Notes: generated from the letters alone by a model not told the origin. A DNA stretch of 64,000 bases from Thermococcus sp. 21S7 (GCF_012027615.1 NZ_SNUT01000001.1:372001-436000), one strand, 5' to 3'; numbered from the stretch's first letter, positions 891 to 14,723 are shown. Numbers and translations: made by a program.

Positions 891-2240
891 TCAATATAAG
901 GTCACTTTGCTTTTCTGTGTGGCCGTTGGTGTTTCGGGGGATTTTCCGTAAAGCTTTGATGCGACTTCTGGACTTAGGATGCGGCCGAATTCGGGCATGA
1001 TCCTGTCAATGAGTCCGTCGAAGAGCATGTTCGTGAATCTCCGATATCGGGCGACGTAACGGGGGTCTTCTGTTGTGGAGATGTAATGCATAAAATCCAC
1101 GCCCTCAGCGCGTCCGAGGAGGTAATTCTTGTATCTTCGCATGTTGTCGAGCCCATAAAGGCCCTTTCCGAAGAGGGAGCTTCCCACGCCTTTGTCCGCG
1201 AGCTCGAACATTCTTGCTTGCAGATAACTGTCAACGTATTTTCTGATTTGGCGCAATCCGATAATCGGCTTTTGCGGTGGATACTTCTGGAGCCATTTGT
1301 TGTTCTGGTACAGGGTCTCAAGCTTTTCTTTACTTCTGAATGCTTTTGCTGGGGTGTAATAATTGTAAAACAGTTTGTCAATCTCGTAATATCCGAAGAG
1401 GGGTTTCGTGGGGTCCGGCAGGTATTTTCTTCGGTATGCTTTAAGTTCCTCAATGAGGACGGGGTGGATGAACACTGGTGTGAAGCTTTTTGTGGCGTCT
1501 TCTTTCAGCTTTTTGCGGTGGAAATATATGATGCCCCTGTTGAGGTCAATTTGATTTATGGTTTCACCGTCAACGATGACTTGGAATTGGAGGTCGTTAA
1601 TTTCTGAGCCTCGCACTCCGGTTAAGAGGGCAATTATTGTCGCCAGCCTGAGGTTTTCAACGGTGCGGGTTTTCTTAGTATGGATCAGTATCTCAAGCCA
1701 TCTTAGGGCGTCTTTCACTCTCTCGTCGCTTATTACTTTGCTTCTCTCGTTGAGCTGATATTCTTTTAGCTGGCGGCCTTTTGTCTGGAACGTGGATTTT
1801 GAAAGCTGTGATACGTAAAACTCGGGGTTAAAAACTTCGAGCCCGATTGTTCTGGAAAGAAGAACGTTGTATTTGCTGAGCAAAATATGCTCCAAGGCCT
1901 TTCTCGTTGAGTAAAGATATATACGCAAAGTGTGGACTGCGGGCCTTCTCTCGCGGATGAATGTTGTAAAGGCGTTGTATATGTCTTTTGTCGTGATTTT
2001 TATCTCGTTCGTGCCGGGCTCGATGCCTTTGGTCTTAATTAGATATTCGAGGAACACATTGACAGCGGTGGATCTGTTCTGAAACTTTCCAACTGTCATT
2101 TGCCCTTCTTTTCTCAGTCTTACGAGTTCTTCTTTGTACTCATCGAAGTCACTTAGCTTGAGTATCACGAACCCGTTGTCTGTGTTTATTACAGCTGTTT
2201 GGGTTGGTGGTGTATAAAATACCTTCCTTCTCACCCCCAC
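891..2240 (-). CDS. Tyrosine recombinase/integrase, 449 aa
   Basis: This is a DNA strand-transfer enzyme of the tyrosine recombinase superfamily, of the large type found in Thermococcales plasmid and virus elements. Visible motifs: box I TGVRGSEIND with catalytic Arg at about 210; box II GLRQIRKY with Arg about 333 (the usual His is replaced by Arg); and LLGRAEGVDFMHYIS, which aligns with the LGH...Y motif and puts the nucleophile at about Tyr386. The N-terminal 180 residues would be the arm/core-binding region. The start is GTG, preceded by GGTGG. A paralog with the same motifs lies at 24972-26325. The gene is intact, unlike integrase genes split by SSV-type integration. Confidence 0.85.
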   Translation of the reverse strand: MGVRRKVFYTPPTQTAVINTDNGFVILKLSDFDEYKEELVRLRKEGQMTVGKFQNRSTAVNVFLEYLIKTKGIEPGTNEIKITTKDIYNAFTTFIRERRPAVHTLRIYLYSTRKALEHILLSKYNVLLSRTIGLEVFNPEFYVSQLSKSTFQTKGRQLKEYQLNERSKVISDERVKDALRWLEILIHTKKTRTVENLRLATIIALLTGVRGSEINDLQFQVIVDGETINQIDLNRGIIYFHRKKLKEDATKSFTPVFIHPVLIEELKAYRRKYLPDPTKPLFGYYEIDKLFYNYYTPAKAFRSKEKLETLYQNNKWLQKYPPQKPIIGLRQIRKYVDSYLQARMFELADKGVGSSLFGKGLYGLDNMRRYKNYLLGRAEGVDFMHYISTTEDPRYVARYRRFTNMLFDGLIDRIMPEFGRILSPEVASKLYGKSPETPTATQKSKVTLY

Positions 2241-3610: not shown

Positions 3611-4075
3611 TTAGAGGAGCTCTTTTAATTTCTGATTCTCACCAATTGCCGCCAGTATCTCAAAGCTAAGTTGATTTCTTTCATGAGCATCAAAAAGGTT
3701 AACATTACTTAACAAAACTTCCATAGCGGCCCCTGGAAAGCCTCTTTCAATCAAATGTTCGATTATCTTAGTGATGGCCTCTTTCAGAAGGTTAGATGAA
3801 AGTTCACTAACAATTTCATTGACAGTATTTTTAAAGAGTTCTTCAATGTTAGTTTTATCACTGTTAACCCTGGCATTTTTGAACTTCCTAAGGATGTCGA
3901 TGACAAGAGGCCGGTTTTCATTGTTTAACGCCTCCAGCATTGCCAAGCTTGCTAGTATTATGTCCGAATACGTGTATGAGACATTAGCAATCTGATTCAG
4001 CTTTTTCTTTTCAGAATTCAGGATTTTGTATGCATCCAATGTGAGTCTAATGGTTTTTGTGTTTAATTCGTCCAT
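3611..4075 (-). CDS. Ribbon-helix-helix-like protein, 154 aa
   Basis: The first 45 residues (TKTIRLTLDAYKIL...YSDIILASL) have the strand-helix-helix pattern of ribbon-helix-helix DNA-binding domains such as VapB/CopG-type regulators. The remaining 100 residues are helical (TVNEIVSELSS...AITKIIEHLIERGF) with no recognised motif. I chose the ATG at 4075 because GGTGA lies just upstream and the longer frame would run into the preceding gene. It is the last gene of a four-gene minus-strand cassette and is a plausible autoregulator or antitoxin for it. Function is otherwise unknown. Confidence 0.6.
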   Translation of the reverse strand: MDELNTKTIRLTLDAYKILNSEKKKLNQIANVSYTYSDIILASLAMLEALNNENRPLVIDILRKFKNARVNSDKTNIEELFKNTVNEIVSELSSNLLKEAITKIIEHLIERGFPGAAMEVLLSNVNLFDAHERNQLSFEILAAIGENQKLKELL

Positions 4076-4139
4076 TGAACTCACCAAAGTGCATTCTTGT
4101 CTTCTGTTAATAAATATTGTCGTGAATAAGCTCGTGTGC

Positions 4140-4364
4140 TTAGTCAAAGTAGTACTTACTTTCCTCTGCAGCTTTTTTGATATCATCAACTAACTCCCTT
4201 AAAGAGCTATATTCGCTTGCCAACCTTTCAAGTTCTGTGATAATAATCTCTGGAGGCAGTATATAAAGCCTGTCAAATTTTATAAAGTCCTCTATCGAGC
4301 CTTTGAAGCTTGTTGCGTATCGTCTAAGAGATTTAACAATCTCCTGGTTCTGTTCTTCCTTCAC
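4140..4364 (-). CDS. Small helical protein of unknown function, 74 aa
   Basis: This is a short, charged protein with a predicted C-terminal coiled-coil-like helix (ITELERLASEYSSLRELVDDI). Its start overlaps the stop of the upstream PD-(D/E)XK gene by four bases (ATGA type), which indicates translational coupling. The tight coupling to a nuclease-like protein would fit a small regulatory or antitoxin-like partner; this is inference, and the family is not recognised. Confidence 0.55.
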   Translation of the reverse strand: MKEEQNQEIVKSLRRYATSFKGSIEDFIKFDRLYILPPEIIITELERLASEYSSLRELVDDIKKAAEESKYYFD

Positions 4365-5686
4365 GGTCTTAAGGTATTCTTTTGTATGGATAAAAAGAAC
4401 TTATCTAGACCAGATTCACTTAGATCTCCCTCTCTTAAAACTATAGACAAACGTGCTCTTAGGAGGATTTCAAGTGTGTCAACAGGAACCACAACAGTAT
4501 AAACTTTGTCCTCAAATTCTTTGAATCTGGAGTGGACATAGTTCATTAATCTTCCATGCAAATCAATTAAGCTGTGAAGATTAAATCTGAAGAGAACAAA
4601 TATGAAAGGAATATCCGGCTTTAGTGGGGCAGCTTTGTATATATCAGACCGCAAAATGTAAGATAAGTATTTTCCATACTTTTCTGTCAGTTCCTTTCTA
4701 AAATCCACATTAAGGGAAGACTTAGCATCAACTATTCCTATAACCCTTACAGCGGGTCCCGTGGGATCTCTGATAAAAACTATTGAGTCCGGAACCTTAA
4801 CGCCTCTATTCTTTGAACCCCCAAAAGTTATATCGACTCCATATAAATACCGAAACGCCAGTGAGGATGTATTCTCAAAATACTCATCAAATTTGGGCAT
4901 GTTTTTTAATTTGAGTGTCTTGAGGTTAGATAACAACGAAAGAAGGTATCTAGGATTTGTTTCAACTGAAACCATGAGCTTCCTAAAGTTTTCAGGTTGA
5001 ATGGAGTTGATTATCCTCCTCTCCAAGTCCTCTATTTTACTATTTGCCTCAATCCAATACGCTAGGTCAGATTTGAGGCGTTTATCCAAAAGCAGGGAAA
5101 ATGGGACAAAATATACTAGATTTCCGAGAGGAAGAATCCCTACTATCTCTAAGAATGCATCCAAGGATTTATCATGTCCTATGAGGATTATAAGCTTTTT
5201 ATTTTGGATATATTTTGATAAAATCCTAAAATAGTCCCTTGGTTTTTTGGGTGGTTTTGTCAAGAGGACGACTGCAAGGCTTTCATCAGAGATTTCAACA
5301 AATCCTGGCATGATATCGGGCTCACTATCTAAAGGAACGTCTAAAACCTCAAGGATAACTCTTATGAGAGCAGGATATATTACCCTATACACAGTAAATT
5401 TGTTTTCGTATTCTTCTGGGGACAGTTCTTTGATTTTCCCAGATTGACATCGTAACAAGTATTTGCCCCTCTTTCGGGGGTCTTCCTTTGGTTTTAGAAC
5501 ATCTACAACTGGAGATCCATCAGGACATGTTGGGGGCACCTTTTCCTCAGCTAGTATCCCCATCCTAAGAAGCTCCTCTATTTCCTTTGGTTTAAGCTTT
5601 GATAATAGTTCCCCCTTTTCTCTGTTAGCAACTACTGGAAATGCATTCAAAAAAGCAAGAAGAGAGTCATAACTACTCCGATTCAT
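4361..5686 (-). CDS. PD-(D/E)XK nuclease-like protein of a putative defence cassette, 441 aa
   Basis: The N-terminal 45 residues look like a winged helix. They are followed by two cysteines in a zinc-ribbon-like setting (CPDG at about 54 and LLRCQSG at about 80). The C-terminal third carries VPD at 298-300 and VDAKS with D320 and K322, preceded by beta-strand sequence and followed by helix. This is the arrangement of a PD-(D/E)XK nuclease fold. The middle region (about 100-290) is not recognised. The gene overlaps its neighbours on both sides (14 bases upstream, 4 downstream), so it is part of one operon. DNA cleavage is inferred from the motif only. Confidence 0.6.
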   Translation of the reverse strand: MNRSSYDSLLAFLNAFPVVANREKGELLSKLKPKEIEELLRMGILAEEKVPPTCPDGSPVVDVLKPKEDPRKRGKYLLRCQSGKIKELSPEEYENKFTVYRVIYPALIRVILEVLDVPLDSEPDIMPGFVEISDESLAVVLLTKPPKKPRDYFRILSKYIQNKKLIILIGHDKSLDAFLEIVGILPLGNLVYFVPFSLLLDKRLKSDLAYWIEANSKIEDLERRIINSIQPENFRKLMVSVETNPRYLLSLLSNLKTLKLKNMPKFDEYFENTSSLAFRYLYGVDITFGGSKNRGVKVPDSIVFIRDPTGPAVRVIGIVDAKSSLNVDFRKELTEKYGKYLSYILRSDIYKAAPLKPDIPFIFVLFRFNLHSLIDLHGRLMNYVHSRFKEFEDKVYTVVVPVDTLEILLRARLSIVLREGDLSESGLDKFFLSIQKNTLRP

Positions 5687-7037
5687 TTATATCCCCCAAG
5701 AATAGTTTTAGTGCCAGTCTCTCTTCCTCTTTCAGCCTACTGTAAACATTCTCTGAGGCCAAGTTAACTGGCTTGTTGTTAATCAGGAGTACTGGCTCAA
5801 CCTTATCACCATATGCCCCAATCAGATCATCAAGGAAATCATCCACATTTGGAACTATCTTTCGGAATTCGTCTAAATCTGCTACTATGTCGACCTTTAG
5901 TGCTCCCGTTGCAGGATCCCCTGGAAATCTAAAACCACCAAGCTTGATAGATTCAATGATCTCGTTCAGTTTTTCTTTTGCTTCATCGGGGAGGTCCAAA
6001 GACTGCAGTTTTTGCACAGCTTCCGATTTTCTCTCCTTGATCTCTTTGTCTATCTGTTCTATTGCGTCTGACATATGCTTTGAATGTTGAATGGTCTGCT
6101 TTACAGTTTCCTTTAGTTCCTCGACAGGTTTGGGCTTGATCAACTTGAGATCGTTCACAGATGTATCTTCTCCAAACAATACGGAGAGTAATCTGTCGAG
6201 CAAATCCCTCGGATATTTCTTGTTCAGGTCAAATCCAAGGATTATTTCTGTTTCCTTGTCATTAATAGGCCTAATTTGCAGGATATAATGACCTAATGGA
6301 TAGATCCACTCTGAAACTTCTTTTAGATCCTCTTTGTTTTTTGGTATCAATGGTGTATGGATGATATTACTGTCCTTTGAATACCTGAGAGTCTCTGATA
6401 TCCCGTAGATTTTCATCCTTCTCCGTACGAAAAATTCCTGATAAGGTCTTCTGCCATATTCCATTGTTATTATCAATTTAATTGCTCCATCGTTAGTGGA
6501 TCTCATGTCAATTCTAGCCCAGTGTATGTTTTTACTGTTCCATTCTCTCACAAATTCATCAATAAGTCGTTCTAACTCTTTGTTGTCTCTGAATAGAAAT
6601 GGTTTATCTAGCAAATATCTATTTTTATCCCGGTTTTTCTCGATATACGCCTCATATCTTATCCAGGAGAGGTAATCCTGAAGTTTTTCCTGTCCAACAT
6701 GACGGTATAAGAACAACAGCACTTCCTCTTTGCTTTTTATAGCGTGTATTTCACCCGCAAAATCAGGAAACATAGTCGCTAGTGCATGTCTGGCACGATT
6801 TGTGCTTATATCCTTACCATCCATCTCCGGGAGATATATTAAAAAGAACTTCAGTATCTCATCCTGGTGTTCCTGCATTAATTCTTCTACGATTTTCTTT
6901 TTCTCTCCCCTTCTGATCTTAATATCTAATCCCAAAACGTCTTTTGCGAATTTCTCAATGAATTCTCGTCTTTTCTGGAGTAGCTTTTTTCTAACATGCT
7001 CAATATCCTCCTGAGAGAACTGTAGTGGTTCCTCCAT
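5673..7037 (-). CDS. Unknown 454-aa protein, first gene of the cassette
   Basis: I do not recognise this protein. It is strongly charged. It has an N-terminal helical region (residues 1-130), a mixed alpha/beta middle (MEYGRRPYQEFFVRRRMKI; GHYILQIRPIND; ETEIILGFDL) and a coiled-coil-like stretch near 320-380 (DAIEQIDKEIKERKSEAVQ). No ATPase or nuclease motif is seen. The start at 7037 is supported by GGGGGAT eight bases upstream. Upstream lies the palindrome CAATTTAAATTG (7067-7078), which may be the promoter element. It leads the cassette with the nuclease-like gene and probably acts as its sensor or partner (inference). Confidence 0.6.
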   Translation of the reverse strand: MEEPLQFSQEDIEHVRKKLLQKRREFIEKFAKDVLGLDIKIRRGEKKKIVEELMQEHQDEILKFFLIYLPEMDGKDISTNRARHALATMFPDFAGEIHAIKSKEEVLLFLYRHVGQEKLQDYLSWIRYEAYIEKNRDKNRYLLDKPFLFRDNKELERLIDEFVREWNSKNIHWARIDMRSTNDGAIKLIITMEYGRRPYQEFFVRRRMKIYGISETLRYSKDSNIIHTPLIPKNKEDLKEVSEWIYPLGHYILQIRPINDKETEIILGFDLNKKYPRDLLDRLLSVLFGEDTSVNDLKLIKPKPVEELKETVKQTIQHSKHMSDAIEQIDKEIKERKSEAVQKLQSLDLPDEAKEKLNEIIESIKLGGFRFPGDPATGALKVDIVADLDEFRKIVPNVDDFLDDLIGAYGDKVEPVLLINNKPVNLASENVYSRLKEEERLALKLFLGDINESE

Positions 7038-7172: not shown

Positions 7173-7496
7173 TCATTCCTGTACCCCACTAGGGCTAGAA
7201 TAAGAGGTCAATTCTCGTTGCAAAGCTTGCCACTCAGGGATATAACTCGAAAGAAGGGCCCTGAACAGCCGATTATGACGTGGAGAACCAACTTTGATAT
7301 GTATCAGCTCATGCACCACGATATATTCTACGACTTCATAGGGAAGCTCCAATATGTCTACACTAAAGGTTAGTGTTCCTTTTGATGATGCAGAGGCCCA
7401 TTTATGCCTCATTTTTTGGAATCGAACTCTCTTAGGATAAACACCAAGTTCTTTTGCCCATCTAGACACAAGTTCATAGACTTCCTCTGGTGTCAT
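7173..7496 (-). CDS. YgjP/WLM-like zinc metallopeptidase, 107 aa
   Basis: The motif VVHELIHIKVGSPRHN contains HELIH followed by an H eight residues later, the zinc-binding signature of the YgjP/SprT-like (DUF45) metallopeptidase family. The domain is short but complete for a minimal gluzincin. The ATG overlaps the 3' end of hsdR by 23 bases, so it is the last gene of the type I restriction-modification operon. YgjP-family genes are often found next to type I R-M genes. Their role there is not established; restriction-subunit turnover is one idea. Confidence 0.8.
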   Translation of the reverse strand: MTPEEVYELVSRWAKELGVYPKRVRFQKMRHKWASASSKGTLTFSVDILELPYEVVEYIVVHELIHIKVGSPRHNRLFRALLSSYIPEWQALQRELTSYSSPSGVQE

Positions 7497-10452
7497 GTAT
7501 CAGCCTCCGTCCCAGTTCAAGGAGATCTTTCCCTATTTTCACTCGTTCCCTCACCTGTTTGACGCCATTCTCTTTCAAAATGCGGTATATCTTTCTCAGC
7601 AGACCTTGTTGAAGGTTTTGATTGTAGGTCCAGCCTTCGTTTGACAATAGGATTTTGGTAATCTCCTCGGATACAGTTACATCTTCTATACCATAGCTTT
7701 TGAGAAGCCAGTGGACACTGAAAGTTGCGGGGTCTAATTTTGATTCTTTGTAGCTTCTCACTGACTCGACGGCACTTTCGGATAGCCCTATAACCTTTTC
7801 TAGGGCCTCTTTTGCACTGATTTGCCTTTCCTCAAGCCTTTTTATAATAGATTCTATCTTTTCGATTAAGAACTCCAGATACGGAACCTCATGCTGGTGC
7901 TCTTTTATGTATCTCATCAAACTACGGCGGAGGTTGTAGACCTTGACAATGTCGTCTATCCTTTCATTTTTTATAGTGTCGGCAATATGCTCATCGATTT
8001 TATAAACAGGAAGGCCATCCACAATGGTTTCAATATCAACGCTATTTCTGATTAGCTCCTTTGTCTTTTTCAACAGTTCTCTTCTCTCAAAATCTGTTGG
8101 ATAGAACTGGGCCTTGATAAACCGGTGAAGCTTTAATAGCAACTTATAGTCTTCGAGATAGTCTCTAAGAAATGGATCAGGGGATAGAATCTCGTAAATG
8201 TCCTGAATGTTCTTGAAAAGTTGAATGAAATCATCCCTCTTTTTGCGATCGCTGAATACCTTCACTAGTTTCTCTAACTTTTTGTCCCAGCTCCGGCTAT
8301 TATCCCGTAATAGCCCGAGATACTCTTCAGCTCTCCCCATTAATTCCGCAAACCTCTTGCGTAGTACTTCCAAATCAAAGACTGCTCCTTCAATACTCTT
8401 ACTGTCAAACGCCAGAGCCCTCTGAAGGTCTTCAAAAATTCCGATGTAATCCACGATCAGGCCGGCTGTCTTATGAAGCTCTCCATCTGAATAGGGGCGG
8501 TTAACTCTTGCAATGGCCTGAAGTAGTGTATGGTCTTTCATGGGCTTGTCTAGATACATGGTTTGGAGAATGGGAGCATCATATCCCGTTAGGAGTTTCT
8601 CGGTAACTATGAGAATCTTAGGTGGCCTCTCCCGTTTTTTGAAGTTTCTTCGTATCTCATCCTCTTGGTCTTCTTTAAGATGATACTTCTTTAGTATACC
8701 TTTGTCATTGTGCATGGGGGTATATACAACTGCAATTTCTTCCGGGGGAATCGCTGAGTGTGGATTCTCTTCATAGAGTTCCTTGAACGCTTCCATATAT
8801 AGGGCGCAGGCTTCTCTATCCACGGCAACAACCATCGCCTTAAATCCAGAGGGTTCAACGAACTTTTTATAATGCTCGGATATATGTTTGGCGACCTTTT
8901 TAATTCTCTTTTTGGCTTTAAGAACCTCTTTTATCTTCGATACTTTATCAAGGAGCTTGTTAAGTTCCTCTATGCTGGCTATTCCTTTCTCTTCGTATAA
9001 CCTGAAAAATTCCTCCAGAATTGTTTTCCTGTCTAAGCGATATTCCTGCGGTGCTAGGGTGTAATATAAGGGGACGGTAGTTCCATCCTCAATGGACTCC
9101 TTGATACCGTATTTGTCTAAGTATGGTCTGTGATACTTCTTCATATCTTCAAAGGCAAAGAGATTAAATGTGCCTTTGCCAATCTTCCCCTTATCTATCG
9201 GGGTACCAGTGAACCCAAAATAGAACGCGTTGGGAAGGGCTGACCTCATCTGAATTCCTAAGTCCCCTTCCTGTGACCGATGAGCCTCGTCGATGAATAC
9301 AAAGATGTTCCTACGGGTGTTTATATTGGAAGGCATTCCCCGGAACTTATGGATTAACGTAACGATGATTCCCCTGTAATCGCTCTTTAACAGTTCCCTA
9401 AGGTGAACTTTGGATTCTGCAACAATGAAATCCAGCCCGAACTTTGTAAGATTACGGACTAACTGTTTCTGGAGTTCAATACGGTCAACGACCATTATAA
9501 TAGTTGGATTCTCCAGCTCGGGTATTCTTCTTATTTTTGAAGCGGCAACCATCATGGTTAGGGTTTTTCCTGAACCCTGGGTATGCCATATAAGGCCAGT
9601 TCTTGCATCTCCTGTAATTGCCCTATTGACTATCCTTTCAACTGCCCTAACTTGGTGTGGTAGCAAGACGAACTTGCTGAGCTCTTCATCCTGTTCAAAG
9701 AATACTATATAATCCTCGATAAATCTCAATGCTCTTTCTTTTCTTAGCATTGAAAAAATCAGGTCTTGGAGGCCGTAATCTTTACCCTCCTCCGTTTTCC
9801 AGCGATAAACGTTTCTTTCGTTGAAGTTCCAAGTTGCTGAGTATATTAGATTGAGACCGTTGCTGGCCATGTACATCTGAAAATATTTCATGAAGTTGGG
9901 AACTTCTTCGTGATACCTGGAGATTTGTTCCACGGCATGAGAGCGCCAATCCTTAACCTCACCATCTACGATGTTAAATAGCCAGGGAGCTTTAGTCTCG
10001 ACGATGAAAAGAGGGATTCCATTGATAAAAAGCACAATATCGGCCCTATCCTTCTTTATATCTTCCATCCAGAATTCTTGAGTGTAGTGAAACACGTTAT
10101 TTTCAGGATTTTCAAAGTCAATCAGTCTTAAATTCAACTCCCTCTTCTCGGATTTGCTATAGAATGTCCTTTGTCCCCTAAGATATCTGAGGAATTCCCT
10201 ATTTCCCTCTATATTAGCCCTGATGTTCCGTATTCTTTGGAGAACCACATCAGCTTCTTCTTCGCCCATAGAGGGATTAAGTTCCAGTAACTTTTTCTTG
10301 AAAATCGGTAGGATAAAGGGCTCTTTCCAAGTTTCTCTCAGTGAATCGATTTTTTCAGGTGAGATGTATTCCCATCCAAGGCTAGTAAGGTACATCATGA
10401 ACGGTTTCTTTGCTGTCTCTTCTTCCGTAAACACTCTGTATCCCCTCCGCAT
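7474..10452 (-). CDS. hsdR: Type I restriction enzyme R subunit
   Basis: This is the ATP-dependent translocase and nuclease subunit of a type I restriction-modification complex, 992 aa, a normal length. The N-terminal nuclease domain has RADIVLF (D138) and VETKAPW (E152, K154). The SF2 motor follows: Walker A TQGSGKT at about 291-297, FIDEAHRS (motif II), FTGTPI (motif III) and the LLQAIARVNRPY arginine-finger motif VI. The C-terminal region is helical and should contact the M2S core. Its start overlaps the end of the HEPN gene by 58 bases. No inactivating change is visible, so restriction should be functional. Confidence 0.95.
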   Translation of the reverse strand: MRRGYRVFTEEETAKKPFMMYLTSLGWEYISPEKIDSLRETWKEPFILPIFKKKLLELNPSMGEEEADVVLQRIRNIRANIEGNREFLRYLRGQRTFYSKSEKRELNLRLIDFENPENNVFHYTQEFWMEDIKKDRADIVLFINGIPLFIVETKAPWLFNIVDGEVKDWRSHAVEQISRYHEEVPNFMKYFQMYMASNGLNLIYSATWNFNERNVYRWKTEEGKDYGLQDLIFSMLRKERALRFIEDYIVFFEQDEELSKFVLLPHQVRAVERIVNRAITGDARTGLIWHTQGSGKTLTMMVAASKIRRIPELENPTIIMVVDRIELQKQLVRNLTKFGLDFIVAESKVHLRELLKSDYRGIIVTLIHKFRGMPSNINTRRNIFVFIDEAHRSQEGDLGIQMRSALPNAFYFGFTGTPIDKGKIGKGTFNLFAFEDMKKYHRPYLDKYGIKESIEDGTTVPLYYTLAPQEYRLDRKTILEEFFRLYEEKGIASIEELNKLLDKVSKIKEVLKAKKRIKKVAKHISEHYKKFVEPSGFKAMVVAVDREACALYMEAFKELYEENPHSAIPPEEIAVVYTPMHNDKGILKKYHLKEDQEDEIRRNFKKRERPPKILIVTEKLLTGYDAPILQTMYLDKPMKDHTLLQAIARVNRPYSDGELHKTAGLIVDYIGIFEDLQRALAFDSKSIEGAVFDLEVLRKRFAELMGRAEEYLGLLRDNSRSWDKKLEKLVKVFSDRKKRDDFIQLFKNIQDIYEILSPDPFLRDYLEDYKLLLKLHRFIKAQFYPTDFERRELLKKTKELIRNSVDIETIVDGLPVYKIDEHIADTIKNERIDDIVKVYNLRRSLMRYIKEHQHEVPYLEFLIEKIESIIKRLEERQISAKEALEKVIGLSESAVESVRSYKESKLDPATFSVHWLLKSYGIEDVTVSEEITKILLSNEGWTYNQNLQQGLLRKIYRILKENGVKQVRERVKIGKDLLELGRRLIHDTRGSL

Positions 10453-11216
10453 TCTACGTAGTCTTTCATAAGCTCGAAAATCTCCTGAGCAAATTCATCT
10501 ACGTGTTTTTCAATAATTCTCTCGGCTTCTTCTTTGTCTAGCTGATCGTTTTTATAGTGTACCAAGGCGGCCCTGATGTTGTGTATTTTGTATCCATCAT
10601 AAATCCCGTTAACCCCAAACTTATCGTATAGTGCACTAACCCACTTATTCTCTCTATATTCTTTGTTAACTAGTTTACCGGCCAGAAGCTCAATTGCAAT
10701 ATACAAGTTAAGAAATCTGTCAATAGGATCCGGATCGCTCATTGCTCGATTCCAGTATTTAATTGCCCTAACGAGAACAGATTCTGAATCGGGATCTATT
10801 CTGTTTAATCTTTCCAAAAGAGATGATATTTTGGCTTGGGGATCTTCAAAGGTCATTGAAATATGAACTTCGCTCTTTACATGGATTGTATCAAATAGAT
10901 GGACTTCTATTGTATTGCCTCTTTTGTAAATCTCTGGGAGCCGTTCTATTTTTATGTCTTTAATCAGATATGGGGACTTTGACAGAAAAATAATGATTGG
11001 AAGCACTTTCTTTTCAATTTCAGAATAAGTATAGTTCTTTATTTGTAATGGTTCATCTTTACTTTTGAATTCAAATTCAGCGTAGATCTTTGGTTTAGGA
11101 TTCCGAGTAGGATCCTCGGTTCTCAGAGTGATGCCATTTATCATAACGGGCTCATTAAATGCAATACTACTGTTTCCAGTAGGTTCAAGGACCACTGTAA
11201 CTTTATAAGAGGGCAT
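10395..11216 (-). CDS. Apea-like HEPN-domain protein in the hsd operon, 273 aa
   Basis: The C-terminal 120 residues read LNLYIAIELLAG followed about 35 residues later by IRAALVHYK. R215 and H220 form the R-X4-H motif of HEPN domains, and the IEL helix is typical of the Apea-like HEPN group. The N-terminal 130 residues are beta-rich and unrecognised. HEPN proteins with this motif are often metal-independent RNases that act as toxins or abortive-infection effectors. The gene overlaps both the upstream nuclease-like gene (14 bases) and hsdR (58 bases), so it is co-expressed with the restriction enzyme. RNase activity and an abortive role are inferred. Confidence 0.65.
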   Translation of the reverse strand: MPSYKVTVVLEPTGNSSIAFNEPVMINGITLRTEDPTRNPKPKIYAEFEFKSKDEPLQIKNYTYSEIEKKVLPIIIFLSKSPYLIKDIKIERLPEIYKRGNTIEVHLFDTIHVKSEVHISMTFEDPQAKISSLLERLNRIDPDSESVLVRAIKYWNRAMSDPDPIDRFLNLYIAIELLAGKLVNKEYRENKWVSALYDKFGVNGIYDGYKIHNIRAALVHYKNDQLDKEEAERIIEKHVDEFAQEIFELMKDYVECGGDTECLRKKRQQRNRS

Positions 11217-11670
11217 TCCAGTTTCTCCTCCGCTTGGTGGATTTCCTCCTTGGAGTGTGGCCTTTTTGGGACTTTTTCTTTTGCGATTTCTTTTTTGGCC
11301 TTGAGTTCTGGTTCCTAACCTTGAATTTTCTTAGTTTTAGAGTCCCAATGTCGGAGGGGAGGCCAGAAACATCTGCTCCGGCAGGGTAAATGATGTTCTT
11401 GCTTTTTATTTCGACGTTTGGACCTGAGAGATACTTCGCATACCTATTAACCTGCTGAACGTGTTTTATTGTTGCTTTGGGTTCCCTTTTCACCTCAAAT
11501 ATATGTCTCTCAATTCTATTACCTCTCCGTCTCTCAACGATGTAATCAGGCTCGTATCCGTTTCTTCGCTCTCGTTCTTTGATAACCCATCCCTTAGAAG
11601 CGGGGAACCTTCGCCGGAGTAGCTCTCTCACATGGGGGTACATATCAAACTCTCTAAAACTTCCCGACAT
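11203..11670 (-). CDS. Small PD-(D/E)XK nuclease-like protein with basic tail, 155 aa
   Basis: The sequence YEPDYIVERR (D42) followed by IFEVKRE (E59, K61) is a classical PD-X16-EVK nuclease core. An acidic residue in the first helix (E16) would complete the site. After residue 118 the protein becomes a very basic tail rich in Lys, Arg and Ser (RPKKKSQKKKSQK and following), suited to binding nucleic acid. It is encoded 81 bases after hsdS and overlaps the HEPN gene. It could be an auxiliary nuclease, or a nuclease fold used only for binding. No family name is assigned. Confidence 0.6.
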   Translation of the reverse strand: MSGSFREFDMYPHVRELLRRRFPASKGWVIKERERRNGYEPDYIVERRRGNRIERHIFEVKREPKATIKHVQQVNRYAKYLSGPNVEIKSKNIIYPAGADVSGLPSDIGTLKLRKFKVRNQNSRPKKKSQKKKSQKGHTPRRKSTKRRRNWNALL

Positions 11671-11751: not shown

Positions 11752-13113
11752 TCACTCCGTTGGGATTTTAAGGTTAAAAACGCGAATCTGACCCGTCATG
11801 AGTTTGTGCCTGAGCGTTGAGAACAGCCCCTCCAGGGCTTTGCGCTTTTGCTGGGCCAGTTCTATCTTTCTGTCTACTGTTTCAAGTATTCCTACTATCT
11901 TTTTTTGCTCTTCTATTGGGGGCAGAATGACAGGAATTCCCCTAAGAACTCCAAGGTACAGATTTGTTCTACCTGCATCACTTTGAACGCGTACATATTT
12001 TTTTAGTATAACTGGCCGACGATATATCAGATAGTACTGCATAAATCTCGGGAGAAATGCATTATTTTTTGGAATTATGGCACATATAGCTTGATTAATT
12101 GCTGAGTCAATACCGAGAATTGCAGTTTTTGTTACTGTGCCTTTTCCATATAATGCTATCAATAATGTTCCTTTAGGAATAATTTTTGCACTAGATTTTT
12201 TAAGACCAATATCCGATATAGTCTCCTCAGTGGAATAAATATAGCCATCATTTAATTCCCCAGATTTAAGCCAAGGAATGCTCCCGTTCCAATACTCTGA
12301 ATGTTGTCTACTAGGGGTACCCCCACTCAAAAGATTTGAAACCTCGCCTAAAGGGGCTACCTCCCAATGCTCCGGGATCTCTCCAATCTCCGTCATCTTT
12401 GTCGGCTGATTTGGGTCAAGACCCTTGGTGAATAACCTCTTCATTAGAGCCCTTTTGAGTTCTTTGGTGGTTTTGATTATCTTCTCCTGCTGTTCAATTG
12501 CCCGCTGGACTGTTTTCAAGACATAGACGATTTTGCGTTGTTCTTCTAATGGGGGAAGTGGAATCCGAACTAGATACATAAATTCCTCGGGGCTAACTCT
12601 TTTCCGATTTGTACTGCCTGTAACGAAATTTCTTATTAGTTCCCATATCGTTGGCTGGGAAAGGTACAGATCCACAAAGTCCTTATCGACGTAATCTAAC
12701 TCTTTCAACCGCCATATCGGAAAATCACCCGAAACAACAGCCCCATCTAATTCCGGGGGAACAAAGCCATAAGCACCGTTCCTGGCATCAATCTTTGAGA
12801 TTATGAAGTCTCCTTCTTGTATTCTGTACATTGTTTTCGTCTTTATCTCACTCCCCTGCTTGATTTCTCTCAGTACAACTCCTTTTGCATACAATTTGAC
12901 GGTAACCAGCCTATACGTCTCATCATCTTTGATTTTAATCTTCCGGGACTTCTTGTCGACAAGCCTGAAAATCTGTCCAAAACTAACAACGTTCCATCCT
13001 TCTGGGAGTTCTCTACCATAAAGTTTCTTTCTCCCTTTTTGGAGGACTGCACTGCCTTTGACTGGAATCTTTGTGTGGTATTGCTTATTTAGGAACTCAT
13101 CCAGCGTTTTCAT
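11752..13113 (-). CDS. hsdS: Type I restriction-modification specificity subunit
   Basis: This 453-aa protein recognises the bipartite target of the type I enzyme. It has the usual two halves: TRD1 (residues about 25-185) ending in the conserved helix IPLPPLEEQRKIVYVL, and TRD2 (about 240-405) ending in VILPPIEEQKKIVGIL. Each half is followed by a long spacer helix. Its ATG overlaps the hsdM stop by one base. The DNA encoding TRD2 (about 11990-12360) looks more AT-rich than the rest, as if this target-recognition domain had been swapped in. Confidence 0.93.
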   Translation of the reverse strand: MKTLDEFLNKQYHTKIPVKGSAVLQKGRKKLYGRELPEGWNVVSFGQIFRLVDKKSRKIKIKDDETYRLVTVKLYAKGVVLREIKQGSEIKTKTMYRIQEGDFIISKIDARNGAYGFVPPELDGAVVSGDFPIWRLKELDYVDKDFVDLYLSQPTIWELIRNFVTGSTNRKRVSPEEFMYLVRIPLPPLEEQRKIVYVLKTVQRAIEQQEKIIKTTKELKRALMKRLFTKGLDPNQPTKMTEIGEIPEHWEVAPLGEVSNLLSGGTPSRQHSEYWNGSIPWLKSGELNDGYIYSTEETISDIGLKKSSAKIIPKGTLLIALYGKGTVTKTAILGIDSAINQAICAIIPKNNAFLPRFMQYYLIYRRPVILKKYVRVQSDAGRTNLYLGVLRGIPVILPPIEEQKKIVGILETVDRKIELAQQKRKALEGLFSTLRHKLMTGQIRVFNLKIPTE

Positions 13114-14723
13114 CAGTCCTCACCCTGAAGATACCCCTCAAAGCCAAGTTCAATCAGGATTTTGTTGAGTTCACTATCTATCACTTTAGTTTCCTGCTCA
13201 ATTCTTCTGAGGTCCTGGAGGATTTCGGGTATCTCTCTGTACTCACCTTCAGTTATCAGGGGGATGTATCTCGAAGGGCTTAGGTTGTAATCGTTCTTCC
13301 TGATTTCTTCCAAGGTTACAACCTTGCTAAAGTCTTCTATGTCCCTGAATTCCCGATAGGCCTTGAGTATCTTGCCAACGTGTTCTTCGGTCATGTAGTT
13401 CTTGGGAGTTCCCTTCTTGAATTCCCGAGAGGCATTAATGAGCAGTACTTTTCCTCTGCGCTCCTCAGGTTTGTTTTTGTTGATAACAATGATAACTCCG
13501 GCGGCGGTGGTGTTGTAGAAGAGGTTTTCAGGGGTTAGGATAACGGCTTCGATTAGATCCTTCTCCACAAACTTCTTTCTGATGTCCCGCTCTCTATTCG
13601 TTCCCTTGGTTCCCGAACCCCTCGAAACAGCCCCGGTATCGATGATTACTACCACTTTTTCCCTTGCTGAGGCGAACATGTGCTGTATCCAGCCCCAGTC
13701 TCCAGTATTACTGGGAGGTATTCCAAACTTGAACCTATCAAATTTGTCGTTGATGTAAACATCCTCCGGGAAGTCCTGGTTCCACATGGGGTTCGCGATA
13801 ACGTAGTCGAACTGTCTTAATTTGCCGTCCTTGTCCAAAAATTTGGGATTGCGTATGGTGTCTCCTCTCCGTATATCTGCCTCCATGTTGTGTAGGATAA
13901 CGTTCATTCTGGCTATGGCGTATGTGAAGGCCAGTTTCTCTTGACCGAACAACTTTAAGGGCTTTTTCTCGGCCTCTTCCGGATAGTTGTACTTAACGTA
14001 GAGCTGGGACTTTATTAAAAGGCCTCCCGAGCCACATGCGGGATCGTAAACCTCCGAGCCGGGCTTTGGGTCAAGGAGATTAACCATAAGCCATGCAACC
14101 TCGCAGGGAGTATAGAACTCTCCTGCACTCTGGCCACTGTCTTCAGCGAATTTTCTTATCAAGTATTCGTAAGCCCTACCCAGAATGTCGGGTTCAACGT
14201 CCTCTGGACCCATTTTCATCTTGTTTAGTATCTGAAGAACCCTCTGGATGATATCATCGCTGATTATTCTTTCTCCCCCGTGAGTCTCGTTGAAATCTAC
14301 GACGTCAATTATGCCTGAAAGCTCAGGATTTAGCCTTGCTATGCCCCTGAGGGCCTCCGTAAGCTTTTCTCCGACGTTTGTTGAAAGTTTAACGATGGTG
14401 TCCCAGTGATACTCTTCTGGAATGACGTATCTAATTGACTTGGGCCTTCCATGCTCTTCTCTTTCGGCCTCTACCAATTCGTAGACCTCATCAACAGTAT
14501 CGATTACGCCCTCCTCAATTAGTTTATTTATCTCATATGTGAACGTATCTGAAAGCCTCTTATAGAAGATTAGGGGAAGAATGTATTTCTTGTAGTCTGT
14601 GGGATTAACAGAACCCCGAATTAGGCTGGCGGCTTCCCAAAGTATGCTTTCCAGCCTAGAAAGCTTCTCATTCTTGTCCTCGCCACATACCATGTTTAGC
14701 TTTGTTGACTCAGATTCAACCAT
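13113..14723 (-). CDS. hsdM: Type I restriction-modification DNA methyltransferase subunit
   Basis: This is the N6-adenine methyltransferase subunit (536 aa). It has an N-terminal helical HsdM domain, GEFYTPCEV just before the catalytic domain, S-adenosylmethionine motif I DPACGSGG at about 227-234, and motif IV NPMW at 311-314 (a variant of NPPF/Y). It is the first gene of the operon hsdM-hsdS-nuclease-HEPN-hsdR-ygjP. GAGGTGAGCTGA precedes the ATG, and a short AT-rich promoter region (14724-14796) separates it from the membrane protein upstream. Confidence 0.95.
   Translation of the reverse strand: MVESESTKLNMVCGEDKNEKLSRLESILWEAASLIRGSVNPTDYKKYILPLIFYKRLSDTFTYEINKLIEEGVIDTVDEVYELVEAEREEHGRPKSIRYVIPEEYHWDTIVKLSTNVGEKLTEALRGIARLNPELSGIIDVVDFNETHGGERIISDDIIQRVLQILNKMKMGPEDVEPDILGRAYEYLIRKFAEDSGQSAGEFYTPCEVAWLMVNLLDPKPGSEVYDPACGSGGLLIKSQLYVKYNYPEEAEKKPLKLFGQEKLAFTYAIARMNVILHNMEADIRRGDTIRNPKFLDKDGKLRQFDYVIANPMWNQDFPEDVYINDKFDRFKFGIPPSNTGDWGWIQHMFASAREKVVVIIDTGAVSRGSGTKGTNRERDIRKKFVEKDLIEAVILTPENLFYNTTAAGVIIVINKNKPEERRGKVLLINASREFKKGTPKNYMTEEHVGKILKAYREFRDIEDFSKVVTLEEIRKNDYNLSPSRYIPLITEGEYREIPEILQDLRRIEQETKVIDSELNKILIELGFEGYLQGED

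What the first reader, a model, noticed from the sequence alone, without database searches (positions are those of the whole stretch)
3611..7037. Candidate undescribed defence cassette: unknown 454-aa protein, PD-(D/E)XK nuclease-like protein, 74-aa protein, RHH-like protein
Seen: four minus-strand genes, the first three overlapping (14 and 4 bases), next to a type I R-M operon and a recombinase. The second protein has a winged-helix-like N-terminus, a two-Cys zinc-ribbon-like segment, and VPD(300)...VDAK(320-322), a PD-(D/E)XK core. The last protein has an RHH-like N-terminus. Known: defence islands collect nuclease-plus-sensor operons. Inference: the 454-aa protein is a sensor or recognition factor, the 441-aa protein the nuclease, and the small proteins regulators. 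I cannot match the set to any system I know.
Basis: partly seen in the sequence, partly recalled or inferred. Interest (0 to 1): 0.75.

Follow-up and report, generated by a model that had tools for sequence, protein, structure and literature searches.

The report
Archaeal two-gene nuclease defence module
Two neighbouring genes in a heat-loving archaeon, one for a probable DNA-cutting enzyme and one for an unknown partner protein, recur side by side in scattered salt-loving archaea next to many different antivirus systems, so they are probably a small archaeal defence system that no reference library consulted here lists.

Summary
The ORFs exist as described, but the cassette is two genes, not four. 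A (454 aa) and B (441 aa, PD-(D/E)XK-type nuclease) are the conserved core. The 74-aa "gene" is B's C-terminal end, cut off by a 4-base gap; a same-genus genome has it in frame. The RHH gene has its own TATA-like box and stands beside other defence-type genes, without A-B, in other genomes of the genus: a neighbour.

Diverged A-B pairs (13-24% identity to the window's) occur in haloarchaea. A lies directly upstream of B in 23 of 23 intact loci, and in a more divergent subfamily. B's E271, D300, D320 and K322 are invariant in 27 of 27 proteins. B was found in 20 of 391 haloarchaeal genomes, 2 of 115 in the window's phylum, and in no bacterial plasmid or phage record. Pairs sit on plasmids and in defence islands; one haloarchaeon repeats the window's order HsdM-HsdS-HsdR-YgjP-A-B. 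Pfam, NCBIfam (B only) and PADLOC hold no matching family.

Best reading: an undescribed archaeal two-subunit restriction-like module, A recognising DNA and B cutting it. A's medium-confidence model resembles kinetochore protein CENP-N (Foldseek E=1.1e-4), without sequence support. The window's own copy may be impaired by the split.

The parts
5673..7037 (-). Gene A, 454 aa: predicted helical N-terminal bundle, central sheet/helix domain with conserved EYGR (193-196), helical linker, C-terminal alpha/beta domain; conserved partner of B
   Evidence: ORF; homologues; directly upstream of B in 23/23 intact loci; AF2 model pLDDT 67; Foldseek top 7 hits CENP-N
4361..5686 (-). Gene B, 441 aa: N-terminal helix, partial zinc ribbon (C54, C80), middle alpha/beta domain, PD-(D/E)XK core E271-D300-D320-x-K322
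   Evidence: catalytic residues 27/27 invariant
4140..4364 (-). 74-aa ORF = severed C-terminal end of B; GTG start overlaps B's stop codon (GTGA)
   Evidence: in frame with B in same-genus G020, L013:1-498
4385..4386 (-). Site of the 4-base gap relative to G020 that splits B (deletion or assembly error)
   Evidence: DNA alignment
3611..4084 (-). RHH-like gene, 157 aa; neighbour, probably a regulator at the edge of exchangeable modules, not a dedicated part of A-B
   Evidence: 93% and 57% identical copies beside other defence-type genes in two genomes without A or B matches
4108..4119 (-). TATA-box-like AT-rich stretch (CAATATTTATTA) about 30 bases before the RHH start; a similar TTTATAATA lies before the RHH gene of G020
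   Evidence: read from sequence; not tested
7173..7496 (-). YgjP-like metallopeptidase, upstream neighbour of A; same position in haloarchaeal L062 (context)
   Evidence: Pfam PF01863 2e-26; L062 order
7474..10452 (-). HsdR of a type I R-M operon (context)
11752..14723 (-). Two ORFs read as HsdS (11752-13113) and HsdM (13113-14723) of the same operon (context)
   Evidence: translations; assigned from sequence, not profile-searched

Best explanation
A-B is a two-subunit, ATPase-free DNA-restricting module that archaea exchange on plasmids and in defence islands. B is a PD-(D/E)XK endonuclease with an N-terminal zinc ribbon; its core E-(n)-D-(n)-DxK is laid out much as in the FokI cleavage domain. 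A is its constant partner and most likely the DNA-binding recognition or targeting subunit, with a predicted CENP-N-like build (helical bundle plus a sheet domain flanked by helices). Together they would bind invading DNA and B would cut it, protecting the cell or the carrying plasmid. Shown: A-B pairing, catalytic residues, patchy distribution, defence and mobile context. Inferred: that B cuts DNA, that A recognises DNA, how self is spared, and that the role is antiviral or anti-plasmid. In the window B is split by a 4-base gap downstream of the catalytic core, so this copy may be dead or may work with a separately translated C-terminal piece.
For: Pairing: homologues of A and B found by separate searches in the same haloarchaeal plasmids; A directly upstream of B in 23/23 intact loci, also in a divergent subfamily (L066; L096 has the same gene layout); A and B divergences correlate, rho 0.88, Mantel 0/1000. 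Nuclease: E271, D300, D320, K322 invariant in 27/27 at about 15-25% identity to the window protein; predicted elements around the core run helix 266-282, strand 316-319, helices 339-352, strand 360-365. Defence and mobile context: type I R-M in the window; same order M-S-R-YgjP-A-B in L062; BrxA/BrxC beside the pair in L059 and an IIG-like enzyme in L065; ZacC in L015. 75 near neighbours match 182 PADLOC families at 1e-10, including near-full-length BrxC, BrxA and HsdR; 75 control ORFs match 61, mostly generic helicase and transposase-type hits. Eight pairs and one B fragment lie on plasmids. Patchy: 20/391 haloarchaeal genomes, 2/115 in the own phylum. A: Foldseek top seven hits all CENP-N, best E 1.1e-4, prob 1.00.
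Against: No functional data. B's own fold search found nothing, and its similarity to FokI is only suggestive (2-5 of 150 shuffles reach it). The CENP-N resemblance comes from a pLDDT-67 model, TM 0.20-0.41, without sequence support. No methyltransferase, helicase or other obvious self/non-self discriminator is part of the conserved pair. The neighbour control is coarse: PADLOC families are redundant, and the control regions are shorter and partly chromosomal.
Confidence: 0.58

Rival explanations
1. A-B is an accessory of neighbouring modification systems: a modification-dependent (type IV-like) or back-up nuclease that works with whichever methylating system it sits beside.
For: Same position behind HsdR-YgjP in an archaeal class far from the window's; BREX, IIG and other methyltransferase neighbours; [ND]PP[YFW] motif in large ORFs of 8/23 A-B loci against 0/14 controls.
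Against: The neighbouring systems differ from locus to locus and many loci show no methyltransferase motif; control regions were shorter, and at least one of the 8 motif hits is likely chance; defence genes cluster anyway.
Confidence: 0.17
2. A-B is an abortive-infection or toxin-type module: A holds B in check and senses infection, B then cuts the cell's own DNA.
For: Tight overlapping gene pair; nuclease plus unknown partner; death-fold-like helical N-terminus in the CENP-N comparison (PMC5777823 describes that CENP-N domain as PYRIN-like).
Against: No separate sensor or signal-producing gene; A is as long as B, unlike most antitoxins; nothing here tests it directly.
Confidence: 0.15
3. A-B is a plasmid or mobile-element maintenance, segregation or competition module, not immunity.
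For: Many copies lie on plasmids or beside conjugation-type genes.
Against: Other copies lie beside defence operons (BREX, type I R-M) rather than beside par or replication genes.
Confidence: 0.07
4. Compatible with any of the above: in the window the module is a decaying pseudogene with no function in this organism.
For: 4-base gap splits B; zinc-ribbon Cys lost; decay elsewhere: L022 has a B fragment without A, L067 has A interrupted by a transposase gene.
Against: All catalytic residues and the A-B overlap are intact; the C-terminal piece keeps an open frame with a GTGA overlap; a draft-assembly error is possible.
Confidence: 0.35

Closest known systems
FokI-type PD-(D/E)XK cleavage domain (Pfam PF09254, type IIS restriction)
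   Same: Order and surroundings of the core: helix with Glu, GG...PD, VDTK/VDAK, later FVxxxFxG-like strand; best profile alignment puts PD and DTK in register
   Different: Not statistically established (p 0.0094 to 0.095); no FokI DNA-recognition domain seen; no cognate methyltransferase; a separate partner protein A
CENP-N (inner kinetochore, PYRIN + CLN-HD)
   Same: A's predicted fold: helical N-terminal bundle followed by a sheet flanked by helices; seven top Foldseek hits; CENP-N binds DNA through both domains (PMC5777823)
   Different: No sequence similarity above shuffles; TM below 0.5; archaeal, paired with a nuclease; no CENP-L-like partner seen
Compact nuclease defence modules in PADLOC (for example Gabija, Hachiman)
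   Same: Compact operon with a nuclease, in defence islands
   Different: No PADLOC model matches B convincingly (one member, PDC-S64, 0.0095) and only scattered weak matches occur for A; no ATPase or helicase partner is conserved
Type I restriction-modification
   Same: Direct neighbour in the window and in L062
   Different: A and B match no R, M or S family and occur without it elsewhere

Membership tests
PD-(D/E)XK nuclease superfamily (B) | Catalytic E...(P)D...(D/E)xK residues conserved across the family | tested here: met
   E271, D300, D320, K322 in 27/27
PD-(D/E)XK nuclease superfamily (B) | Alpha-beta-beta-beta-alpha-beta core fold in a structure | tested here: inconclusive
   Model pLDDT about 42-72 over the core, compatible helix/strand order, no Foldseek match
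FokI cleavage-domain family | Significant profile similarity | tested here: inconclusive
   p 0.0094-0.095; 2-5 of 150 shuffles reach the score; no Pfam match
FokI-type (type IIS) R-M system | Cognate methyltransferase in the same system | tested here: not met
   Conserved unit is A-B only
CENP-N / CHL4 family (A) | Structural similarity to CENP-N | tested here: inconclusive
   Foldseek E 1.1e-4, prob 1.00, but TM 0.20-0.41 and a pLDDT-67 model
CENP-N / CHL4 family (A) | Sequence-profile match | tested here: not met
   Not among the Pfam families shown for 23 members; hhalign no better than shuffles
Known anti-phage systems in PADLOC 2023 | Profile match to system components | tested here: not met
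Defence-island module | Located beside diverse known defence genes more often than control regions | tested here: met
   182 against 61 PADLOC families, with near-full-length BrxC, BrxA, ZacC, HsdR; coarse control
Defence-island module | Protects against virus or plasmid | not testable with these tools
   needs experiment
RHH regulator as part of the cassette | Co-occurs with A-B and not otherwise | tested here: not met
   present in G005 and G034, which gave no A or B match

The most novel reading that the evidence does not exclude
An archaea-restricted immune system in which a CENP-N-like DNA-binding protein (death-fold-like bundle plus CLN-HD-like domain) directs a FokI-like nuclease to foreign DNA; it would be a prokaryotic counterpart of an inner-kinetochore protein, suggesting that this part of the kinetochore was drawn from a prokaryotic conflict system.
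Probability: 0.22. Interest if true: 0.88.

Novelty: new variant of a known kind. Interest (0 to 1): 0.6.

Why it matters
Archaea appear to carry fewer known defence systems than bacteria; a 2026 survey of 7,747 archaeal genomes found only one system type exclusive to Archaea and called for archaeal-specific systems to be uncovered (PMC12988326). A-B is a concrete, testable candidate: two genes, a mutable active site, natural copies in cultured haloarchaea. If the CENP-N-like fold of A holds, it would also bear on where inner-kinetochore proteins came from.

Tried and rejected
Weak hits of B residues about 90-200 in several genomes of the window's genus (one SIS-domain protein checked in L002) vanished with the family profile: chance. 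The G064 hit (L007, E 2.6e-5, one stop inside) was also not found with the profile. Pfam hits of A to influenza NS1 and T4 scaffold, and of the RHH protein to TBPIP, are below cut-offs. PDB sequence searches with the family profiles gave only unrelated sub-threshold hits. Viral contigs and phage records hold no relative. Foldseek of A against viral models: nothing below 0.001, which serves as background for the CENP-N result. Programmed frameshifting at the T-run in B was considered: no canonical slippery heptamer by eye, and the 4-base gap against G020 explains the split. The idea that B is CENP-L-like was dropped: no such hit. No paper linking CENP-N with archaea was found in the held library.

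Full report
What is in the window. The window is 64 kb of a draft genome (48 contigs, 2.37 Mb); the genus is not named by the tools, but gene content looks like Thermococcus (inference). The four minus-strand ORFs exist at the stated places with the stated overlaps. Upstream lie a YgjP-like metallopeptidase gene (PF01863, 2e-26) and a type I HsdR, followed by ORFs that read as HsdS and HsdM.

Two genes, not four. In genome G020 of the same genus a contig begins inside B and reads without interruption through the end of B into the 74-aa sequence (L013:1-498). Aligned DNA (84% mean column identity) shows a 4-base gap in the window between positions 4386 and 4385. The 74-aa ORF is therefore the C-terminal end of B. 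Haloarchaeal B proteins of the main family are 475-506 aa, with a C-terminal segment at the corresponding place. The GTG that would start the 74-aa ORF overlaps B's stop as GTGA, so a coupled second product cannot be excluded; nor can an assembly error.

The RHH gene. A 93% identical RHH gene occurs in G005 beside PAPS-reductase-like and AAA-ATPase genes, and a 57% identical one in G034 beside a helicase and a PLD-type protein. Neither genome gave an A or B match. In G020 and G005 the RHH gene, a 154-aa gene and an oxidoreductase gene follow one another in the same order, as if the RHH gene marks the edge of a slot filled by different defence modules. In the window and in G020 a TATA-like box precedes it (read by eye). 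I treat it as a neighbour, perhaps a regulator.

The A-B pair is a conserved unit. tblastn with A and with B separately hit the same haloarchaeal plasmids, in adjacent genes. A profile search of sampled Halobacteria found B in 20 of 391 genomes; in the window's phylum 2 of 115; a sample of the wider halobacterial phylum added none. No hit arose in bacterial plasmids or phages. Those searches do not cover all bacterial genomes. In every non-redundant locus with an intact B and DNA upstream, A lies directly upstream on the same strand, usually overlapping by 4-20 bases: 23 of 23. The exceptions are a B fragment (L022) and contig ends (L013, L057). A more divergent subfamily keeps the arrangement (L066; L096 by gene layout); in L067 a transposase gene interrupts A. 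Divergence of A and B is correlated (Spearman 0.88, Mantel 0/1000), as expected for co-inherited partners.

What B is. Against Pfam, NCBIfam and PADLOC, B and its relatives give nothing convincing. In an alignment of 27, the columns without exception include E271, D300, D320, K322, S323, Y343 and F363, the signature of a PD-(D/E)XK active site. An N-terminal CxxC...C is kept in all relatives covering it; the window has lost the second Cys. The AlphaFold2 model (pLDDT 63) is weak over the catalytic loop and found no PDB match. Profile alignment with the FokI cleavage domain (sequence typed from general knowledge and confirmed against PDB 1fok) places PD and DTK in register but is only suggestive (p 0.0094 to 0.095; 2 to 5 of 150 shuffles reach the score). 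I claim the superfamily-type motif, not FokI membership.

What A is. No family matches. Its model (pLDDT 67, 258 residues at 70 or better) has a helical N-terminus, a central domain of several strands and helices, a helical linker and a C-terminal alpha/beta domain. Foldseek against the PDB returns human CENP-N as the first seven hits, best E 1.1e-4, probability 1.00; against viral models nothing is below 0.001. CENP-N consists of a PYRIN-like helical bundle and a six-stranded sheet between helices, and both domains contact DNA (PMC5777823). The seven hits are one protein in several structures, TM is 0.20-0.41, and sequence comparison is no better than shuffles. The resemblance is a lead for a DNA-binding role, not proof of kinship.

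Context. Neighbours are defence genes of many kinds: type I R-M in the window and, in the same order M-S-R-YgjP-A-B, in haloarchaeal L062; the window additionally has two ORFs between S and R. BrxC and BrxA lie beside the pair in L059, an IIG-like enzyme in L065, an HmaC/DUF499-type protein in L060; ZacC in L015; annotated methyltransferase and helicase genes in L016 and L019. 75 neighbours within 2.6 kb match 182 PADLOC families at 1e-10 against 61 for 75 control ORFs of the same genomes, where the leading hits are generic UvrD helicases and Cas12f-model matches of the kind that transposon TnpB genes give. Several copies are on plasmids with conjugation genes.

Mechanism. The simplest account is that A binds DNA and positions B, which cuts it. 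The pair has no ATPase and no methyltransferase family match, so self-discrimination must come from A, from DNA modified by neighbours, or from a structural feature of invading DNA. My estimates: defence or conflict role about 0.8, B a nuclease about 0.9, A the recognition subunit about 0.5 to 0.6.

Novelty. No match in the libraries consulted; a 2026 survey reports almost no archaea-only systems (PMC12988326). I rate it a new variant of a known kind (compact nuclease module), with a partner protein that may be of wider interest.

Noticed in passing
window 10395-11670: Two ORFs (273 and 155 aa) sit between HsdS and HsdR; the 273-aa one has a weak PADLOC match to DzbB (8.7e-5), the 155-aa one a very weak Cas4-like match. 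Unusual inserts in a type I R-M operon.
   Followed up: no
window 891-2240: 449-aa ORF looks like a divergent tyrosine recombinase by motifs (TGVRGSEIN..., GLRQIRK) but has no integrase match in Pfam.
   Followed up: no
L093:3618-9486 and L094:3556-9323: In other genomes of the genus the RHH gene is preceded by different defence-type modules (PAPS-reductase-like plus AAA-ATPase plus SMC-like protein; helicase plus PLD-type protein), suggesting an exchange hot spot.
   Followed up: partly
L062:9140-18844: Haloarchaeal locus with HsdM-HsdS-HsdR-YgjP-A-B in the same order as the window, despite about 22% identity of A and B.
   Followed up: yes
L067:10573-13366: The A gene of a divergent A-B pair is interrupted by a transposase gene.
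   Followed up: no
L022:10028-12118: A truncated B without A lies next to an annotated Pycsar effector and cyclase pair on a Haloterrigena plasmid.
   Followed up: no
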